NCBI RefSeq assembly: GCF_002843235.3
Contig: NZ_CP031123.2
Span: 2,480,001 to 2,544,000 of the forward strand
Direction of reading: 5' to 3'
DNA from: Providencia huaxiensis
GTDB lineage: Bacteria > Pseudomonadota > Gammaproteobacteria > Enterobacterales > Enterobacteriaceae
Length of the DNA stretch: 64,000 bases
Shown: positions 4,043 to 38,809 of the stretch, in pieces
Layout: each line of letters begins with the position of its first letter
Position numbering within the stretch: position 1 is the stretch's first letter
Position numbers and translations under genes: made by a program
The notes under the pieces: generated by a model
Database searches by the model: none
What the model saw: only the letters and a program-made list of their open reading frames with translations
What the model was told of the DNA's origin: nothing

Positions 4043-4081
4043 CTCACATAGGGGCGAAACCAGATGAGAGAATGCAAAAGC

Positions 4082-4249
4082 TATCTCTTCGTCTCGGTTT
4101 TAGCACTATACAACGTATCCTGACTTTAGCAGGAAGTTACATGGGGATATACCTTCGGTCGATATATCCTGTCCTGATCTTGGGCGTCTCTCGACGTCGT
4201 CAGATCAGTAACCTATGTTTGTATAGGAGCCTCGCCTAACGAGATACTG
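4082..4249 (-). promoter_or_regulatory. M-box (ykoK) magnesium riboswitch
   Basis: Read on the minus strand, the leader contains the conserved M-box blocks in order. GTTAGGCGAGGCTCCTATAC is at the 5' end (about 4241-4222), followed by TACTGATCTGACGACGTCGA and GAGACGCC, and the 3' block GTGCTAAAACCGAGACGAAG (4106-4087). The outer stem joins TATCTC near 4249 with GAGATA near 4082. M-boxes sense Mg2+ and shut down Mg2+ transporter genes when it is abundant. The element lies 77 nt ahead of mgtE, a standard target. Confidence 0.92.
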
Positions 4250-4268
4250 CACTTTGGATGCGGCGCGA

Positions 4269-32380: not shown

Positions 32381-32635
32381 TCAATGTATTGAGCTATATG
32401 TACCACCATTTACATTTACGACGCCATATAAAAAAGACGTAGGATCAACATTGAAAAGATAAGCAAATTGAAATAATGAATCAACATCAATGCAACTTTC
32501 GCCAGTCTCGAATCGATTCATTTCTTCTTCTGTTACACCGATTAAGCTTGCCATTTTTTCTATCGATATTTTATGGTTTTCTCGCTGTTTTCGGATTTTT
32601 ATCCCTAGCATTTTAGCAATGCTTTCCTTGCCCAT
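32381..32635 (-). CDS. XRE-family helix-turn-helix protein
   Basis: An 84-residue DNA-binding protein. The HTH covers about residues 12-66: KIRKQRENHKISIEKMASLIG, the turn VTEEEMNRFETGES, and LFQFAYLFNVDPTSFLYG. The size recalls the small MrpJ-type regulators of fimbriae and motility in Proteus and Providencia, but no fimbrial genes are near. Target unknown. Confidence 0.8.
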   Translation of the reverse strand: MGKESIAKMLGIKIRKQRENHKISIEKMASLIGVTEEEMNRFETGESCIDVDSLFQFAYLFNVDPTSFLYGVVNVNGGTYSSIH

Positions 32636-33543
32636 AATAACCTCTACTAAATATTAAAATGAATATTATCAACCGGTGCGTAAATTATCACCAACCGTAA
32701 ATTTATAAATTGACTTAAAATAATAAAACTCTGATTAAATGAATCGTTTTAAGACAATCCATTAATGAAAAACAAACAGAAAAACCAGATAAGCAGATGA
32801 TATAATTAGATTATATCTATTTCATTGTTACATTTTAGTTGTGATGGTCATCACATAACATTTTAAGACCCAATAAAGATAGAAACTAGGTTATAGTCAG
32901 TCACCAGCTAATAAATTGTATTTCCAATTTAATTTAAATTCTAGCTTACATTTCCAATTTGATAAAACTATATTGCCAAATTTAATGTTATAACCTTAGG
33001 AAATTCGTGACAATTTGTATTCATCCGTATCAATAAGTTTCCACAAAGCAATTATAATAAAGAAAAATTTTTTTCATCATAAAAAAAGACGTTTTTTTTT
33101 ATTTATTAGTCGAAATAACAAGATTAGATTCAGGTAATAATAATAAGACATTCTATATTACGCTTATAAGGTTAAAGCACTTTTAAGATTAGTAAGTTAC
33201 ATTATTTCAATCTTATTTTGAATCTCTAAAATAGATTACTATAACAGATCGTCTTAGATGTAAATAAAATTATGTCTCACACTTATGCCATATTCATTAC
33301 TTTCAGTCTATACACAGTATGTAAAAATTAGGCAAATTACGTAAACGCCTAACAAGTGTATTTAAGCATTCAATCTAACCCCTCCCTTATCAAAACTTAC
33401 TTAACTTCACATCTTTTTAATAAAATTGTCAGTTAGCATGCTATCCTATTACGAGCACCTATGAATACTTACCAGTCATCACACTGAGTTATTATATGAC
33501 CTCTTATTTTATTGGTAAGTAAAAGAGACCTGAAAGGATAATC
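32636..33543. other. Long AT-rich gap between the XRE gene and the rob-like pseudogene
   Basis: About 900 bp with no gene. Three related copies of a TTTCCAATTT-like word (about 32930, 32951 and, degenerate, 32974) lie within 60 bp. ACTTACCA (33467-33474) and TGGTAAGT (33513-33520) form an inverted pair in front of the rob-like gene and might flank its promoter. Otherwise nothing recognisable. Confidence 0.5.
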
Positions 33544-33959
33544 ATGCTACAAGAAAGTGTTATCAGGGAAATCATTCTCTGGATAGAACAAAATTTAGAA
33601 TCTCGCCTATCCCTAGATACTGTTGCCGATAAATCAGGATACACAAAATGGCACTTTCAGCGCCTATTTAAAAACCAAACAGGACTCGCACTTGGCTCCT
33701 ATATCCGAGCAAGACGTCTTTCTTGTTCTGCTGTCGCATTACGGCTAACAAATGACAGCATAATGGACATTTCTCTAAGATACCGCTTTGACTCGCAACA
33801 AACTTTTTGCCGCGCGTTTAAAAAGCAATTTAATCTGACCCCTTCTGAATATAGAAAACGAGAAGGATGGAAAGTTGAAGGGTTCTGTTTACCTTTACGA
33901 GAGAGTAAAGAGCTCAGTGTTCAAGTTAAATTGGCTCAGTTACCCGCAATCAACTTACT

Positions 33960-33965
33960 CGGAAC
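33960..33965 (+). repeat. Left copy of candidate target-site duplication
   Basis: CGGAAC here and again at 35601-35606 bracket the insertion. Both copies lie in the same reading frame of the rob-like gene, as expected if one target was duplicated. Six bases is more than the usual 3-5 for IS3-family elements, so chance may have extended the match. Confidence 0.7.
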
Positions 33966-34037
33966 CCCCCTGTGTCAGGATAGTTGTCGCCTCAGTTTTT
34001 CATAAAAATATAACAGGGAGCGGTAAGTTAGATATTA

Positions 34038-34529
34038 GTGAAGCATTATCCTGAAGATCATAAGAAAGCCATCATTAGAAAGCTGGTTGAAAGTGGCTTA
34101 TCATTACGCCAATTCGCAAAGCTAGAAAGTATCAACTTATCTACTTTGTATTCATGGCGAGATAAGTATTTAAAAGCAGGTTCTAGTTTGGCTGATAGCA
34201 ATAGTTCAGATGGTTGGTCACCAGAGCAAAAGTTCTCAATTGTTTTAGAAACAGCAGCATTGAGCGAAATTGAGTTAAGTGAGTATTGCCGTGAAAAAGG
34301 GCTTTACCCTGAGCAAGTTAAAGAATGGAAGCGAAGCTGCATTGCAGGCAATCAAACTAAAGCCCAGCAACGTAAGCAATTAACCCAAGAGCGAAAGGAT
34401 GATCGTAAGCGGATTAAAGAGTTAGAAAGAGAGTTAAAGCGCAAAGATGCTGCGCTTGCTGAAACGGCAGCGTTGTTGGTGCTCAGAAAAAAGTTAAATG
34501 CCTACTGGGGGGAAGACGAGGACAATTAA
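34038..34529 (+). CDS. IS3-family transposase OrfA
   Basis: A 163-residue protein with a GTG start. Two HTH-like units (LSLRQFAKLESINLSTLYSW and LSEYCREKGLYPEQVKEW) bind the IS ends, and a leucine-zipper-like coiled coil (about residues 110-150, KRIKELERELKRKD) allows multimer formation. A slippery A AAA AAG lies 37 bp before the stop, so part of the ribosomes should enter orfB. Confidence 0.9.
   Translation: MKHYPEDHKKAIIRKLVESGLSLRQFAKLESINLSTLYSWRDKYLKAGSSLADSNSSDGWSPEQKFSIVLETAALSEIELSEYCREKGLYPEQVKEWKRSCIAGNQTKAQQRKQLTQERKDDRKRIKELERELKRKDAALAETAALLVLRKKLNAYWGEDEDN
34487..34493 (+). other. Programmed -1 frameshift site of the IS
   Basis: A AAA AAG stands in the right phase to orfA (AGA AAA AAG). 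Slipping back one base leads into the orfB frame, which is open from here through 35569. This is the classic IS3-family way to make the OrfAB transposase. Confidence 0.8.
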
Positions 34530-34621
34530 CCTCACTCACAGATAGGCAGCATTACGCATCTCTGATTGATGAAGCAGTCGGCTCAGGTGCTAGAAAAGAG
34601 AAAGCCTGTGAAGAAGTTGGT

Positions 34622-35569
34622 ATGTCTGTACGCACATTACAACGCTGGCAGGAAAGCGGTGAAATCAGTGGTGACAAAAGACCTACAGCTGATAGGCCAG
34701 AACCGAGTAACAAGCTCACTGAGGAAGAGCAGCAAGCGATATTAGCTACCTGTAACCAAGAAGAATACGCCAATTTAGGGCCAAGTCAGATAGTGCCAAT
34801 GCTGGCAGATAACGGGCAATATCTCGCGTCTGAATCGAGCTTTTATCGTGTGTTGAAAGCCAATGACCAGCTAGCCCATCGAGGTAAAGCAAAACCTAAA
34901 GGTAGCCGAGCTAAACCTAAGGGGTACACAGCGACAGCGCCAAACCAAGTGTGGACTTGGGATATTAGTTACTGCCCGTCAACGGTCATTGGTCGGTTCT
35001 TCTACCTCTACATGATAATCGACATCTTCAGCCGTAAGGTTGTCGGGTGGGAAGTTCATGACAGTGAATCAGGTGAACATGCTGCCCAATTGCTTGAGCG
35101 CACGCTCTGGTCTGAGAAATGCGTTAAAAAAGACGTGGTATTGCATTCAGATAACGGTAGCCCGATGAAATGTTTGACGATGCAAGCCAAAATGCTTGAT
35201 ATGGGTGTCATTGGCTCTCGTAGCCGCCCCGGTGTCAGCAATGATAATCCGTACTCAGAATCATTGTTCCGCACGGTCAAATACAGTCACCGCTGGCCAA
35301 GCGAAGGCTTTAAAAGCCTTGAAGATGCAAGAGCTTGGATGAAAGGCTTCGCTCAATGGTACAACACTGAGCACAGGCATAGTCGCATCAAATTCGTGAC
35401 ACCAGCGCAACGCCATAATGGTGAAGATAAAGCGATATTGGCAAGACGCCATGAGCTATATACCAAAGCGCAAAAAAAGAACCCTAACCGCTGGTCAAAG
35501 GGTATTAGAAACTGGGAGGAAATCGGTGATGTGAAATTAAACCCAGAGAACAAAAAAGAAGCTGCTTAA
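34622..35569 (+). CDS. IS3-family transposase OrfB (DDE integrase domain)
   Basis: 315 residues from the ATG at 34622, though the frame is open back to the slippery site, so the active product is most likely an OrfA-OrfB fusion. The rve catalytic triad is complete: Asp in VWTWDISYC, Asp in LHSDNGSPM and Glu in YSESLFRTVKY. The segment VRTLQRWQESG before it is a helper HTH. No stop or frameshift interrupts it, so the element may still be active. Confidence 0.92.
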   Translation: MSVRTLQRWQESGEISGDKRPTADRPEPSNKLTEEEQQAILATCNQEEYANLGPSQIVPMLADNGQYLASESSFYRVLKANDQLAHRGKAKPKGSRAKPKGYTATAPNQVWTWDISYCPSTVIGRFFYLYMIIDIFSRKVVGWEVHDSESGEHAAQLLERTLWSEKCVKKDVVLHSDNGSPMKCLTMQAKMLDMGVIGSRSRPGVSNDNPYSESLFRTVKYSHRWPSEGFKSLEDARAWMKGFAQWYNTEHRHSRIKFVTPAQRHNGEDKAILARRHELYTKAQKKNPNRWSKGIRNWEEIGDVKLNPENKKEAA

Positions 35570-35600
35570 CAGCTCAGGCGACAACTACCTTGAAAAACGC

Positions 35601-35606
35601 CGGAAC
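35601..35606 (+). repeat. Right copy of candidate target-site duplication
   Basis: Second CGGAAC, directly at the right border of the insertion sequence; see the left copy at 33960-33965. Confidence 0.7.
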
Positions 35607-36060
35607 TAAGCATCGTTATACTAAAGATATTAATGAGTGGAACCTAAAAACCGATGAACTGCGCCGATACTATTGGAGGGCTTTTTTTGAGAAAAACCCT
35701 TATGTCACGCAGCATTTATATGCTATCCATGGTATTGACCAAAGCGCTAATGCAGAAGGGCATTTCCTATATACCACGGCTCTAGATGAACAAGATGTTA
35801 GTATTGCGCTTCCGCAAGCAACTAACTTACAGTTACCCTCAGGAAATTATTTAGAAATCAAAATCACTAGTAGCCTTCATGGTATAGATTATAATGATAT
35901 TATCTATACTGCTTATGGGAAGGTGCTTGCTGAAATGGATATCGTCCGTGGTGAAGGGCCAGATGTTGAGCAATATGTCCTAAAGTCTAAACCCTCTTAT
36001 GAGGCATTCATTAATGATTCACGCCATTTCATTCAAGAACTAAATTATTATATTCCCGTT

Positions 36061-36120
36061 ATTATTTAACGACTAGGTATTTAACAAATAGCTATTTAAC
36101 AACTAGCTATTTAACAACCA
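36061..36120. repeat. Four tandem 15-bp units after the rob-like stop
   Basis: Units begin at 36061, 36076, 36091 and 36106; the third and fourth, GCTATTTAACAACTA and GCTATTTAACAACCA, differ by one base. The first is degenerate and overlaps the rob-like stop codon. All share TATTTAAC. Confidence 0.85.
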
Positions 36121-36168: not shown

Positions 36169-38202
36169 TTAAAAAGTCACATTCATTTTTGCCCAGAAAT
36201 TTCTCCCTGGTTCATTCACTGGCACGTTGGATGAATAGCCAAAACCGCTGTTTCCAGCTAAATTAAGGTGCTCGCTATAGGTTTTGTCAAAAAGGTTATC
36301 AACACCTGCGCTTAATTTCATGTTTTCATTAATTTTATACGCTGTATTTAATGAAAAAATTGTGAAACCCGCACTTTTGCTAAAATCTTTACCCACTACA
36401 TTACCATCATTAATGGCAACGCGATTTTGGCGGCTCACGACTCGTACTAAGCCTGTCGTGGTCCAATCGCCTTTTTCCCACGATAAGCCAAATCGGCTTT
36501 CCAACGGTGGCATTTGCGGTAATGCCTTTCCATCTGTACGGTTTTCGCCCCATGAATACGCAAGGCTTGCATCCGCTTTCCACTCATCACTGAGTTTTTG
36601 TGCAACACCGAGTTCTCCTCCCATAATTAACGCATCCACATTTTCCACCTGGCTCATTCTTGGATTTGTTGCGCTATAACGGAAGAGAATAAAATCATCA
36701 ACACGCCCTACATATGCAGAAACCCATGCATTGGTGTCTTCATGGCTATATTTAGCACCAATATCTAGCTGAGTCGTTTTTTCAGTTTTTAGCTTATCAA
36801 ACACATTATTGCTACCATCCGGGCCGAGTTTAGGCGAGAACAATTCCCAATAATCAGGAAAGCGTTCTGTATAACCGACACCTGCATATAACATAACAGG
36901 CGTACCCGATAAAGAATGCTCATAACGCGCAAAGCCTGCTGGCATCACAGTATTACGCCCTGAAGAACCTACTCCGGTATTATTTTCGACTATCACGCGG
37001 TCTAAACGTACCCCGCTGACCACTTTGCCTTGCTCAGTTGGATGCCAAGTTAGCTCGCTAAAAACACCATAATCTTGAAATTGTGCATCTTTTTTCCAGC
37101 TATTGTGATTGTTTTTTCGATGCTTATTGGTTTGCATGTCTGCGCCGGCACGCAGTTCATAGTCTGACCATAACCATGTTCCCATCGTTCGCCCCCCCAT
37201 GGTTTCACGGTCAACTCGCATTTTCATTGGCATATTCATCATGCCATGGCCACCATGCCCCATATGACCACCACTCATTCCGCCACCTGATGGAGAACGA
37301 AGCGAGTAGTTATCCATTATATGATCGGCATAATTGTAATAGACATTCGCTTCAATTTTATCTAACACATCGCTGAGATTACTTTTCTCAAAGCGCAATC
37401 CTAAGCTTTCGCGTTTAAACTGAGAGCCATCCATTCCCCTCCCCGCATAGCGAGCTTCCCCATCGCCTTTACCAGCAGTCAACTCTAATAATGTGTATTC
37501 ATCAGGAGTCCAACCAACCGCAATATCAGTATTCCATTTGTCCCATTTAGACGGTACTTTGTCCCCATTACCATCTTTATAATCATTAGAACGTGACTTA
37601 TTGCCAATAACGCGAATGTAGCCAGACTCATTACCTAAACTCACATCTGCATTGCCATCCCAACGCTCATTAGATGCGGCTAAAACACTCGCGTTTCCTT
37701 TCATTCCTGCTTCAGTAAATAGCGGTTTTTCACGTTCAAAACGGATGGTTCCCGCAGAGTTCCCAGGCCCCCATAAAACAGTTTGAGGGCCTTTAATCAT
37801 ATTCAGTACATCAAAGTTTTCCGGTGAGATATAAGATGTAGGCGCATCCATACGAGAAGGACATGCACCTAACATCTCGCTATCATTGGTCAAAATACGC
37901 AAACGCGAGCCGAACATGCCACGAAAAACAGGATCACCGTTAGTCCCACCGTTTCGTATTTGTGAAAAACCCGGAATAGTTTTGAGATAATCAGAACCAT
38001 CACTCGCAGGGACGGGCTGCCTTGGTGTTTTAGGTGATGTCGTAATGGTTAATGGTGAATCAACTGGCGCAGTCACAATCATCACTGAGCTATCTGAGAT
38101 TGGGCTTTGGTTAATTTCAGCTTTAGCGGCTGTAGACGCCGTAAAAATTGCACTAATTACCAGTGTTGCAATAGGAGCCACTTTAAAAATGTGTGTGTTC
38201 AT
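36169..38202 (-). CDS. TonB-dependent copper receptor
   Basis: A 677-residue outer-membrane protein with a Sec signal peptide (cut near AKA|E29). A TonB-box-like stretch leads to the plug (LKTIPGFSQIRNGGTNGDPVFRGM, GPQTVLWGPG), then a 22-strand barrel ending in NVTF with a terminal Phe. It follows the NosA/OprC copper-receptor subfamily, including ACPSRMDAPTSYISPENFD. A surface loop rich in Met, His and Gly (SGGHMGHGGHGMMNMPMKM, about residues 312-330) is a likely Cu binding site. The DUF2946 gene is 181 bp upstream on the same strand. Confidence 0.9.
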   Translation of the reverse strand: MNTHIFKVAPIATLVISAIFTASTAAKAEINQSPISDSSVMIVTAPVDSPLTITTSPKTPRQPVPASDGSDYLKTIPGFSQIRNGGTNGDPVFRGMFGSRLRILTNDSEMLGACPSRMDAPTSYISPENFDVLNMIKGPQTVLWGPGNSAGTIRFEREKPLFTEAGMKGNASVLAASNERWDGNADVSLGNESGYIRVIGNKSRSNDYKDGNGDKVPSKWDKWNTDIAVGWTPDEYTLLELTAGKGDGEARYAGRGMDGSQFKRESLGLRFEKSNLSDVLDKIEANVYYNYADHIMDNYSLRSPSGGGMSGGHMGHGGHGMMNMPMKMRVDRETMGGRTMGTWLWSDYELRAGADMQTNKHRKNNHNSWKKDAQFQDYGVFSELTWHPTEQGKVVSGVRLDRVIVENNTGVGSSGRNTVMPAGFARYEHSLSGTPVMLYAGVGYTERFPDYWELFSPKLGPDGSNNVFDKLKTEKTTQLDIGAKYSHEDTNAWVSAYVGRVDDFILFRYSATNPRMSQVENVDALIMGGELGVAQKLSDEWKADASLAYSWGENRTDGKALPQMPPLESRFGLSWEKGDWTTTGLVRVVSRQNRVAINDGNVVGKDFSKSAGFTIFSLNTAYKINENMKLSAGVDNLFDKTYSEHLNLAGNSGFGYSSNVPVNEPGRNFWAKMNVTF

Positions 38203-38383
38203 TTTTTACCTGTTTCTTAGAGTATAGCTACGCTGCTTTCGCCTCTTAGCTTGCAAATACATTTTCAGCCCTCAAGGGGGAACCTCTTAAAAATCAAAGA
38301 AATTCAAGATGAACGAAAACGCTTTGCACAATAAAAGCAAAAGTAGCAATTTAATTAATTTGAAAATTTATAATATTAAGAAA

Positions 38384-38809
38384 TCAGGAGATTGGTGGGG
38401 CTCGAGCGAGATGTAATGACCATGGTCTAAATAACCAAATGTGAGTGCAACTCTCAAAGGGAATAAATAGAGTTAGCGTGGCAAATTGCCGAATAACCGC
38501 AGCAATAAGTAAGATAAGAAATGGGAAGTGGATCAATAATTGGCAGTAACCACATGCAATATCTTCCATCGGAGACTGCCCTATCCCCGTCATTAACATA
38601 TGGTTCATTGGTATAGAAACGTCACAGCCTTCAGACATAGGCATACTGTGATGCGAATGCATAGAAGAGTCTACCCTCTCACTTTGTATATCTGTACAAG
38701 TGTCCATATGCACCATGGACTTAGAAACCAAAGGTGCAATAAACAACATTGCAATGGCAAGCAAAGCAAGATAAGCGGATAGCTGTTTGATAAAAGGGCG
38801 CAGGTGCAA
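38384..38809 (-). CDS. DUF2946-family membrane protein
   Basis: A 141-residue protein. An N-terminal hydrophobic helix (LALLAIAMLFIAPLVS) is followed by a Met/His/Cys-rich periplasmic part (MHSHHSMPM) and a CGYCQLLIH motif just before a second helix, the DUF2946 pattern. Members accompany copper receptors and copper-handling genes. The reading frame begins with TTG at 38809; the ribosome site is poor, so the start is uncertain. Probably co-transcribed with the copper receptor gene. Confidence 0.75.
   Translation of the reverse strand: MHLRPFIKQLSAYLALLAIAMLFIAPLVSKSMVHMDTCTDIQSERVDSSMHSHHSMPMSEGCDVSIPMNHMLMTGIGQSPMEDIACGYCQLLIHFPFLILLIAAVIRQFATLTLFIPFESCTHIWLFRPWSLHLARAPPIS

What the first reader, a model, noticed from the sequence alone, without database searches (positions are those of the whole stretch)
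33544..36069. Rob-like regulator cut by an IS3 element; excision at CGGAAC restores the full frame
The left ORF is the double HTH of Rob plus the first part of its GyrI-like domain; the ORF beyond the IS carries the rest. CGGAAC occurs at both borders in the same phase, and joining there gives 294 codons with Rob-like spacing. The split leaves a 153-residue protein that resembles the one-domain activators MarA, SoxS and AarP. The insertion may thus have turned a two-domain regulator into a free DNA-binding activator, which could alter efflux and resistance expression.
Basis: partly seen in the sequence, partly recalled or inferred. Interest (0 to 1): 0.72.

Follow-up and report, generated by a model that had tools for sequence, protein, structure and literature searches.

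The report
Rob-like regulator split by IS element
A mobile DNA element recently jumped into a Providencia gene regulator related to E. coli Rob and cut off its signal-sensing half, which is an ordinary kind of event, although the DNA-binding half that is left looks intact and might still be active.

Summary
One 294-codon Rob-like gene is interrupted inside codon 141 by a 1637-bp IS3-family element (33966-35602). The target duplication is the 4-bp GAAC (33962-33965, 35603-35606), not CGGAAC: the right-hand CG is the element's own end. The genome holds nine identical copies, each with a 4-bp duplication; none was found in 23 other genomes of the genus. The gene is not RobA: it belongs to a Morganellaceae sister clade ("Rob2"), and an intact RobA lies elsewhere in the genome. 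The cut lies in the second strand of the ligand-binding domain. The modelled 153-residue remnant keeps all seven DNA-binding helices and has a mostly disordered tail. Upstream region and start are intact. Whether the remnant is a free MarA-like activator or a quickly degraded stub cannot be decided here. The other eight insertions hit varied places and both halves show low dN/dS, so nothing shows selection for the truncation. An ordinary IS interruption with one testable regulatory twist.

The parts
33230..33543 (+). Upstream region and ribosome-binding site of the Rob-like gene, unbroken
   Evidence: Alignment of own sequence with four close relatives: 88% mean column identity, 33395-33434 invariant, GAGACCTGAAAGG just upstream of the ATG invariant
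33544..33963 (+). Left piece of the Rob-like gene: codons 1-140, complete AraC-type double HTH domain plus start of the GyrI-like domain
   Evidence: Pfam HTH_18 E 4.8e-20; PDB Rob E 1.9e-42; seven helices predicted with high confidence
33962..33965 (+). Left copy of the 4-bp target-site duplication GAAC
   Evidence: 9 of 9 copies in the genome have matching 4-bp flanks
33966..35602 (+). IS3-family insertion sequence, 1637 bp, nine identical copies in the genome
   Evidence: NCBIfam transpos_IS3 189.9 bits against a cut-off of 160 for orfB
33964..34005 (+). IS-derived tail of the 153-residue remnant protein (about 12 residues and stop)
   Evidence: ORF 33544-34005; pLDDT below 50 at residues 137-153
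34032..34529 (+). orfA of the IS (open frame; GTG start at 34038)
   Evidence: HTH_Tnp_1 E 4.1e-13; frame limits
34463..35569 (+). orfB of the IS (stop-to-stop frame, -1 relative to orfA; ORF list gives ATG 34622), integrase core
   Evidence: rve E 3.1e-18; frame overlap 34463-34529
34487..34493 (+). A6G slippery run inside the orfA/orfB overlap, as used for -1 frameshifting in IS3-family elements (recalled)
35603..35606 (+). Right copy of the 4-bp target-site duplication GAAC
35607..36069 (+). Right piece of the Rob-like gene: last base of codon 141, codons 142-294 and stop; most of the GyrI-like ligand-binding domain
   Evidence: Cass2 E 6.8e-9; Rob C-terminal domain; 96% and 94% identical to the same part of the intact genes of G015 and G011

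Best explanation
A recent transposition of an IS3-family element into codon 141 split a conserved two-domain AraC/GyrI-type regulator (a Morganellaceae paralog of RobA, here called Rob2). Shown: the element, its ends, its duplication, the single-frame gene in relatives, and the preserved DNA-binding half. Inferred: the strain has lost ligand-responsive Rob2 function. What can still be made is a 153-residue DNA-binding fragment with a disordered tail, from the native upstream region. Because the domain that in E. coli Rob controls activity and shields it from proteolysis is gone, the fragment is most likely short-lived and of little effect (my estimate 0.7), less likely a signal-independent activator (0.2), otherwise a competitor at mar-type sites (0.1).
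For: Nine identical 1637-bp copies, each with a 4-bp duplication; 0 of 23 other genus genomes match the element at E <= 0.001 (in most genomes 14 first-look candidates were scored). Gene halves abut in 23 of 23 relatives, one 294-295-codon frame in 22 of 23. Of 32 named Morganellaceae loci 26 were translated, and 26 of 26 give uninterrupted 294-301-residue proteins; the six not translated there include the frameshifted P. stuartii NCTC11800 (L110); the Providencia ones overlap with the 23 genomes. The model of an intact homolog is Rob-like (Foldseek 1d5y E 2.6e-24) with strands at 126-133 and 136-146, so the cut after residue 140 lies inside the second strand. Remnant model: seven helices, residues 121-130 and 137-153 below pLDDT 50; best matches Rob, MarA, SoxS. 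Upstream region and ribosome-binding site conserved. A review passage says Rob has a moderate effect and needs very high overexpression for a phenotype (PMC7216687).
Against: No expression, stability or binding data. In an E. coli evolution experiment rob truncations rose in frequency; expressing the H48-frameshift form raised fitness about 14% under isoprenol where deletion gave no gain, though strong induction made it negative (PMC7653855, passages read), so truncated Rob can have activity. Simulations of Rob without its C-terminal domain show MarA-like binding to both boxes (PMC8279559, passages read).
Confidence: 0.78

Rival explanations
1. Gain of function: the insertion frees the DNA-binding half from control by the ligand-binding half, giving a constitutive one-domain activator like MarA, SoxS or AarP that raises mar/sox-type promoters.
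For: Residues W36, H37, Q39, R40, Q86 and T99 are present in the remnant; all but T99 are invariant in 40 aligned homologs and T99 is at 90% or more. Remnant fold like MarA (1bl0, TM by target 0.88). Upstream region conserved. Precedents in E. coli: PMC7653855 and simulations in PMC8279559.
Against: Loss of the domain said to prevent degradation in vivo (PMC13335620 passage); clustering of Rob said to prevent Lon degradation, and rob overexpression said not to be seen in clinical isolates (PMC7216687 passage). Rob2 DNA targets are unknown. Mar-box pattern at up to 2 mismatches: 23 found, 24.5 expected, none between 32636 and 33543. The eight sibling insertions show no targeting of regulators (one of eight is in a MocR-like gene). 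dN/dS of the left piece against G015 is 0.052, within the 0.030-0.077 of three relative pairs, so no sign of change after insertion, though the insertion may be too young to tell.
Confidence: 0.2
2. Two separate genes (a MarA-like gene and a stand-alone GyrI-like gene) that happen to flank an IS.
For: Both are open frames of sensible length; stand-alone GyrI-like proteins exist (3gk6, 1jyh).
Against: 23 of 23 relatives have the pieces abutting, 22 of 23 in one frame; GAAC duplication in matching phase; the right frame's only listed start is a TTG at 35590 inside the IS end.
Confidence: 0.01
3. Assembly artefact: repeats of the IS joined wrongly.
For: The element is in nine identical copies, which short reads can misjoin.
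Against: Each of nine copies has its own matching 4-bp duplication on both sides, which misjoins would not give; the genome is in 6 contigs, the chromosome contig 4.57 Mb.
Confidence: 0.02

Closest known systems
RobA (right origin-binding protein), E. coli and Enterobacterales
   Same: Two-domain layout, 58% identity to 1d5y over the DNA-binding domain in the structural alignment of the remnant, same overall fold of the intact homolog
   Different: Separate Morganellaceae clade (100/100); the close intact relative scores 275.7 against the RobA model cut-off of 380; this copy is interrupted; a second, intact gene of the same genome groups with RobA
MarA / SoxS / RamA / AarP one-domain activators
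   Same: Length scale, double HTH, predicted fold of the remnant (AarP recalled, not compared)
   Different: The remnant carries about 47 extra residues after the HTH domain, mostly disordered from 121 on, about 12 of them from the IS; the left piece scores below the MarA, SoxS and RamA model cut-offs
Truncated Rob variants in laboratory evolution (PMC7653855)
   Same: Loss of the C-terminal domain of a Rob protein by a single mutation (passages)
   Different: Those arose in E. coli rob by stop or frameshift under isoprenol; here an IS in a paralog, with no phenotype known
IS3-family elements such as those annotated IS1240 and ISAs20
   Same: orfA/orfB with -1 overlap and A6G run, integrase core, short duplication
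   Different: 57-59% protein identity to the best listed plasmid copies, 87-88% to entries named Thalassotalea and Shewanella; outermost 5 bases CCCCC/CGGCG are not repeats of each other

Membership tests
RobA (NCBIfam NF012228 / NF011701) | Whole-protein score above the curated cut-off (380 / 426 bits) | tested here: not met
   Close intact relative L054: 275.7 and 267.1 bits; the own pieces, taken apart, score 198.7 and 65.3 on NF012228
RobA | Branches inside the RobA clade | tested here: not met
   27 Rob2 rows and 15 RobA rows separated by one branch, 100/100. The earlier tree with six more rows, one of them very long, gave the Rob2 side only 90/70 and RobA 99/97. The interrupted gene itself was in neither tree; its relative G015 stood in for it
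Rob-type AraC + GyrI-like architecture | Double HTH followed by GyrI-like ligand-binding domain | tested here: met
   In the two pieces taken apart and in an intact homolog; in this strain the two domains are physically separated
MarA/SoxS/RamA one-domain activators | Curated model cut-off (MarA 250 or 202, SoxS 174, RamA 180 bits) | tested here: not met
   Left piece of 142 codons: MarA 110.7 and 112, SoxS 124.4, RamA 122.4 bits
MarA/SoxS/RamA one-domain activators | Binds mar-type boxes and activates transcription on its own | not testable with these tools
   Needs binding and reporter assays; contact residues are conserved
IS3-family element | IS3 transposase model | tested here: met
   orfB 189.9 bits, cut-off 160; orfA alone 46.9 bits over the first part of the model
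IS3-family element | Two ORFs overlapping in -1 phase with slippery run (recalled) | tested here: met
   34032-34529 and 34463-35569, A6G at 34487
IS3-family element | Short direct duplication of target, 3-5 bp (recalled) | tested here: met
   4 bp at 9 of 9 copies
IS3-family element | Terminal inverted repeats with TG...CA ends (recalled) | tested here: inconclusive
   An imperfect inverted repeat lies just inside the ends; the outermost bases are CCCCC and CGGCG and do not match

The most novel reading that the evidence does not exclude
A natural conversion, by one transposition, of a ligand-gated two-domain Rob-type regulator into a signal-independent one-domain activator, i.e. a live example of how MarA/SoxS-type proteins could arise from Rob-type ancestors, acting on a still unknown Rob2 regulon.
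Probability: 0.15. Interest if true: 0.5.

Novelty: new member of a known kind. Interest (0 to 1): 0.24.

Why it matters
It corrects the identity of the gene: a Rob paralog found in Providencia, Moellerella, Proteus and Morganella, separate from RobA, with an intact GyrI-like half in nearly all relatives examined. Of two searches of the held library meant for it, one found 0 papers and the other 28, none of whose 10 listed titles and abstract starts concerned it. [quoted passage not shown] If it is inert, this is one of nine hits of a recent IS burst.

Tried and rejected
Two-separate-genes reading: rejected. Hexamer CGGAAC as duplication: rejected by comparing nine copies. Functional link to the neighbouring TonB-dependent copper receptor: it starts within about 0.25 kb downstream (convergent) in 17 of 23 genus loci, 1.8-4.7 kb away in 5 and was not seen in 1, but tblastn at E 1e-10 found it in 0 of the 20 named Moellerella, Proteus and Morganella loci within the fetched flanks (about 4 kb a side, less at contig ends), so linkage is not a property of the gene family. 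Mar-box scan: as many hits as shuffles give. Outward promoter from the IS right end into the right piece: no + strand hit there. Selection from dN/dS: uninformative. Do natural truncations of Rob2 keep the DNA-binding half? In one search I looked at 10 proteins picked by eye from the 120 listed (of 125). Four end or shift in the C-terminal domain or right after the HTH domain (P0040, P0075, P0121, P0123), two shift inside the HTH domain (P0144, P0202), P0051 ends late in the C-terminal domain, P0122 and P0050 look by eye like a contig end and an adapter artefact, and P0197 is a different short protein; so no trend. The first tree had a very long row, the island Rob-like gene, and was rebuilt without it, the long row P0029 and four further rows. 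IS name: no near match on plasmids; the whole locus gave none in phages. Paper searches listed nothing that I recognised as being on this locus; only titles and abstract starts of the listed papers were seen there.

Full report
What is there. The nearest named carrier of this gene is Providencia rettgeri YPR31, whose protein is 94% identical to that of the intact relative G015. Between a small HTH gene (32381-32635, minus) and a TonB-dependent copper receptor (36169-38202, minus; TIGR01778 823.6 bits) sits a Rob-like gene in two pieces, 33544-33963 and 35607-36069, with an IS3-family element between them.

The insertion. The genome has nine copies of the element. All nine are identical over 1637 bp and each is flanked by its own 4-bp direct repeat. 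From this the element is 33966-35602 and the duplication here is GAAC. The codon phase of the two copies is the same, and 140 whole codons, one split codon and 153 codons give 294. The element has orfA and orfB overlapping in -1 phase with an A6G run at 34487. It matched in 0 of 23 other genomes of the genus at E 0.001 (in most of them 14 first-look candidates were scored) and was not found on plasmids at megablast level. It is not confined to this genome: the identical transposase stands for a 90% cluster of 107 sequences on 54 contigs, the longest of which, 4,117,520 bases, is not the contig of the window. Beyond that cluster the closest entries bearing a name are Thalassotalea (88%) and Shewanella (87%). 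A recent arrival followed by a burst is the natural reading.

The empty site. In 23 of 23 other genus genomes the two pieces lie next to each other. In 22 of 23 they form one frame of 294-295 codons. The exception, G010, whose contig has the length of that of Providencia stuartii NCTC11800, is frameshifted here and its copper receptor gene also lies in several frames, which points to sequence quality or decay, not to two genes. Two relatives, G008 and G023, have the same bases immediately around the target with a single copy of it; the other six relatives printed differ at or next to it. In a search of 295 genomes of the family the 14 non-own matches with E up to 3e-78 all lie in one open frame of 301-325 codons, while the own genome gives two separate pieces (only the best matches were listed).

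Which gene it is. The own genome has two further full-length Rob-like genes (C6:70337-71218 and C6:3934608-3935447) and three short one-domain relatives at 41-50% identity. A tree of 42 rows separates 27 rows of this gene's family from 15 RobA rows with 100/100 support; the own gene at C6:70337 falls with RobA. This tree leaves out six rows: the island Rob-like gene and P0029 for their long branches, and four others (P0042, P0046, P0052, P0055). With all 48 rows the Rob2 side had only 90/70 and the RobA side 99/97. G015 stands in for the interrupted gene in both. The intact relative scores below the RobA equivalog cut-off (275.7 against 380). So the split gene is a Morganellaceae paralog, here called Rob2, present in Providencia, Moellerella, Proteus and Morganella. 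The name Rob2 is mine.

What is left of it. A model of an intact homolog (P0001, 40 rows, mean pLDDT 87.8) has helices up to residue 105 and strands at 126-133 and 136-146, and matches Rob best. The cut after residue 140 therefore breaks the second strand of the ligand-binding domain. The 153-residue remnant keeps seven helices at high confidence; residues 121-130 and 137-153 are below pLDDT 50. Its best structural matches are Rob, MarA and SoxS. Residues W36, H37, Q39, R40, Q86 and T99 are kept. The region upstream, including the stretch 33395-33434 that is invariant in five genomes, and the ribosome-binding site are unbroken. The right piece has no convincing start of its own (a TTG at 35590 within the IS end).

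Does it do anything? In E. [quoted passage not shown] the primary paper, Griffith 2009, is not held, and was seen only as a title that names Lon). Loss of that domain could free the DNA-binding half or expose it to degradation. Precedent for the first: rob stop and frameshift mutations rose in frequency in an isoprenol evolution experiment, and expressing the H48-frameshift form raised fitness about 14% where deletion gave no gain, but strong induction made fitness negative (PMC7653855, passages); that form, though, keeps only the first HTH. Simulations of Rob without the domain bind like MarA (PMC8279559, passages). [quoted passage not shown] Eight of the nine IS copies, this one included, lie in genes and one between genes; the other hits are an RND transporter gene (twice) and genes that look by eye like an OpgB-type transferase, a MocR-type regulator, a fimbrial usher, a phage integrase and a formate dehydrogenase cytochrome b subunit (names recalled, no family search was run on these). 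That is what near-random insertion in a gene-dense genome gives. dN/dS of the left and right pieces is 0.052 and 0.056 against G015, and 0.037-0.054 and 0.050-0.134 against G011, G008 and G023; three pairs of relatives give 0.030-0.077 (left) and 0.047-0.114 (right), so the right piece slightly exceeds that range against G008 (0.134) and G023 (0.123). Four more distant relatives were near saturation, and the near-identical pair G008-G023 was left out of the range. Mar-box-like patterns are at chance level in the window.

Verdict. The identity needs correction (a Rob paralog, not Rob; a 4-bp duplication) and the functional claim is open. I rate loss of regulated function with an inert or short-lived stub as most likely, and a freed activator as a minority reading worth a simple laboratory-strain test.

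Noticed in passing
L078:4585-13813 (own genome C6:3934584-3943812): An RND-type efflux transporter gene is broken in three pieces by two inverted copies of the same IS, beside an intact membrane fusion protein gene, a TetR-type regulator and a third, very divergent Rob-like gene (names by eye except the Rob-like one). Described only.
   Followed up: partly
window 4078-4250, minus strand: M-box (magnesium) riboswitch, Rfam RF00380, 147.4 bits against a gathering score of 44.
   Followed up: no
window 33433-33444: TTAGCATGCTAT, resembling the SlyA palindrome TTAGCAAGCTAA (recalled), lies in the conserved block upstream of the Rob-like gene; G015 has the same letters and G011, G008 and G023 differ. 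The intact gene may be under MarR/SlyA-type control.
   Followed up: no
L076:4699-5584 (G010; Providencia stuartii NCTC11800, L110): The Rob2 gene is frameshifted after about codon 155, leaving a 169-residue product, and the copper receptor gene nearby lies in several frames.
   Followed up: partly
P0075, P0121, P0123, P0144, P0202: Sporadic shortened Rob2 proteins, named as or most like Proteus, Morganella and Providencia entries; some keep the DNA-binding half, some break it.
   Followed up: partly
window 36169-38809: TonB-dependent copper receptor followed by a DUF2946 gene, directly downstream of Rob2 in 17 of 23 genus loci but found near it in 0 of 20 named loci of Moellerella, Proteus and Morganella.
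   Followed up: yes
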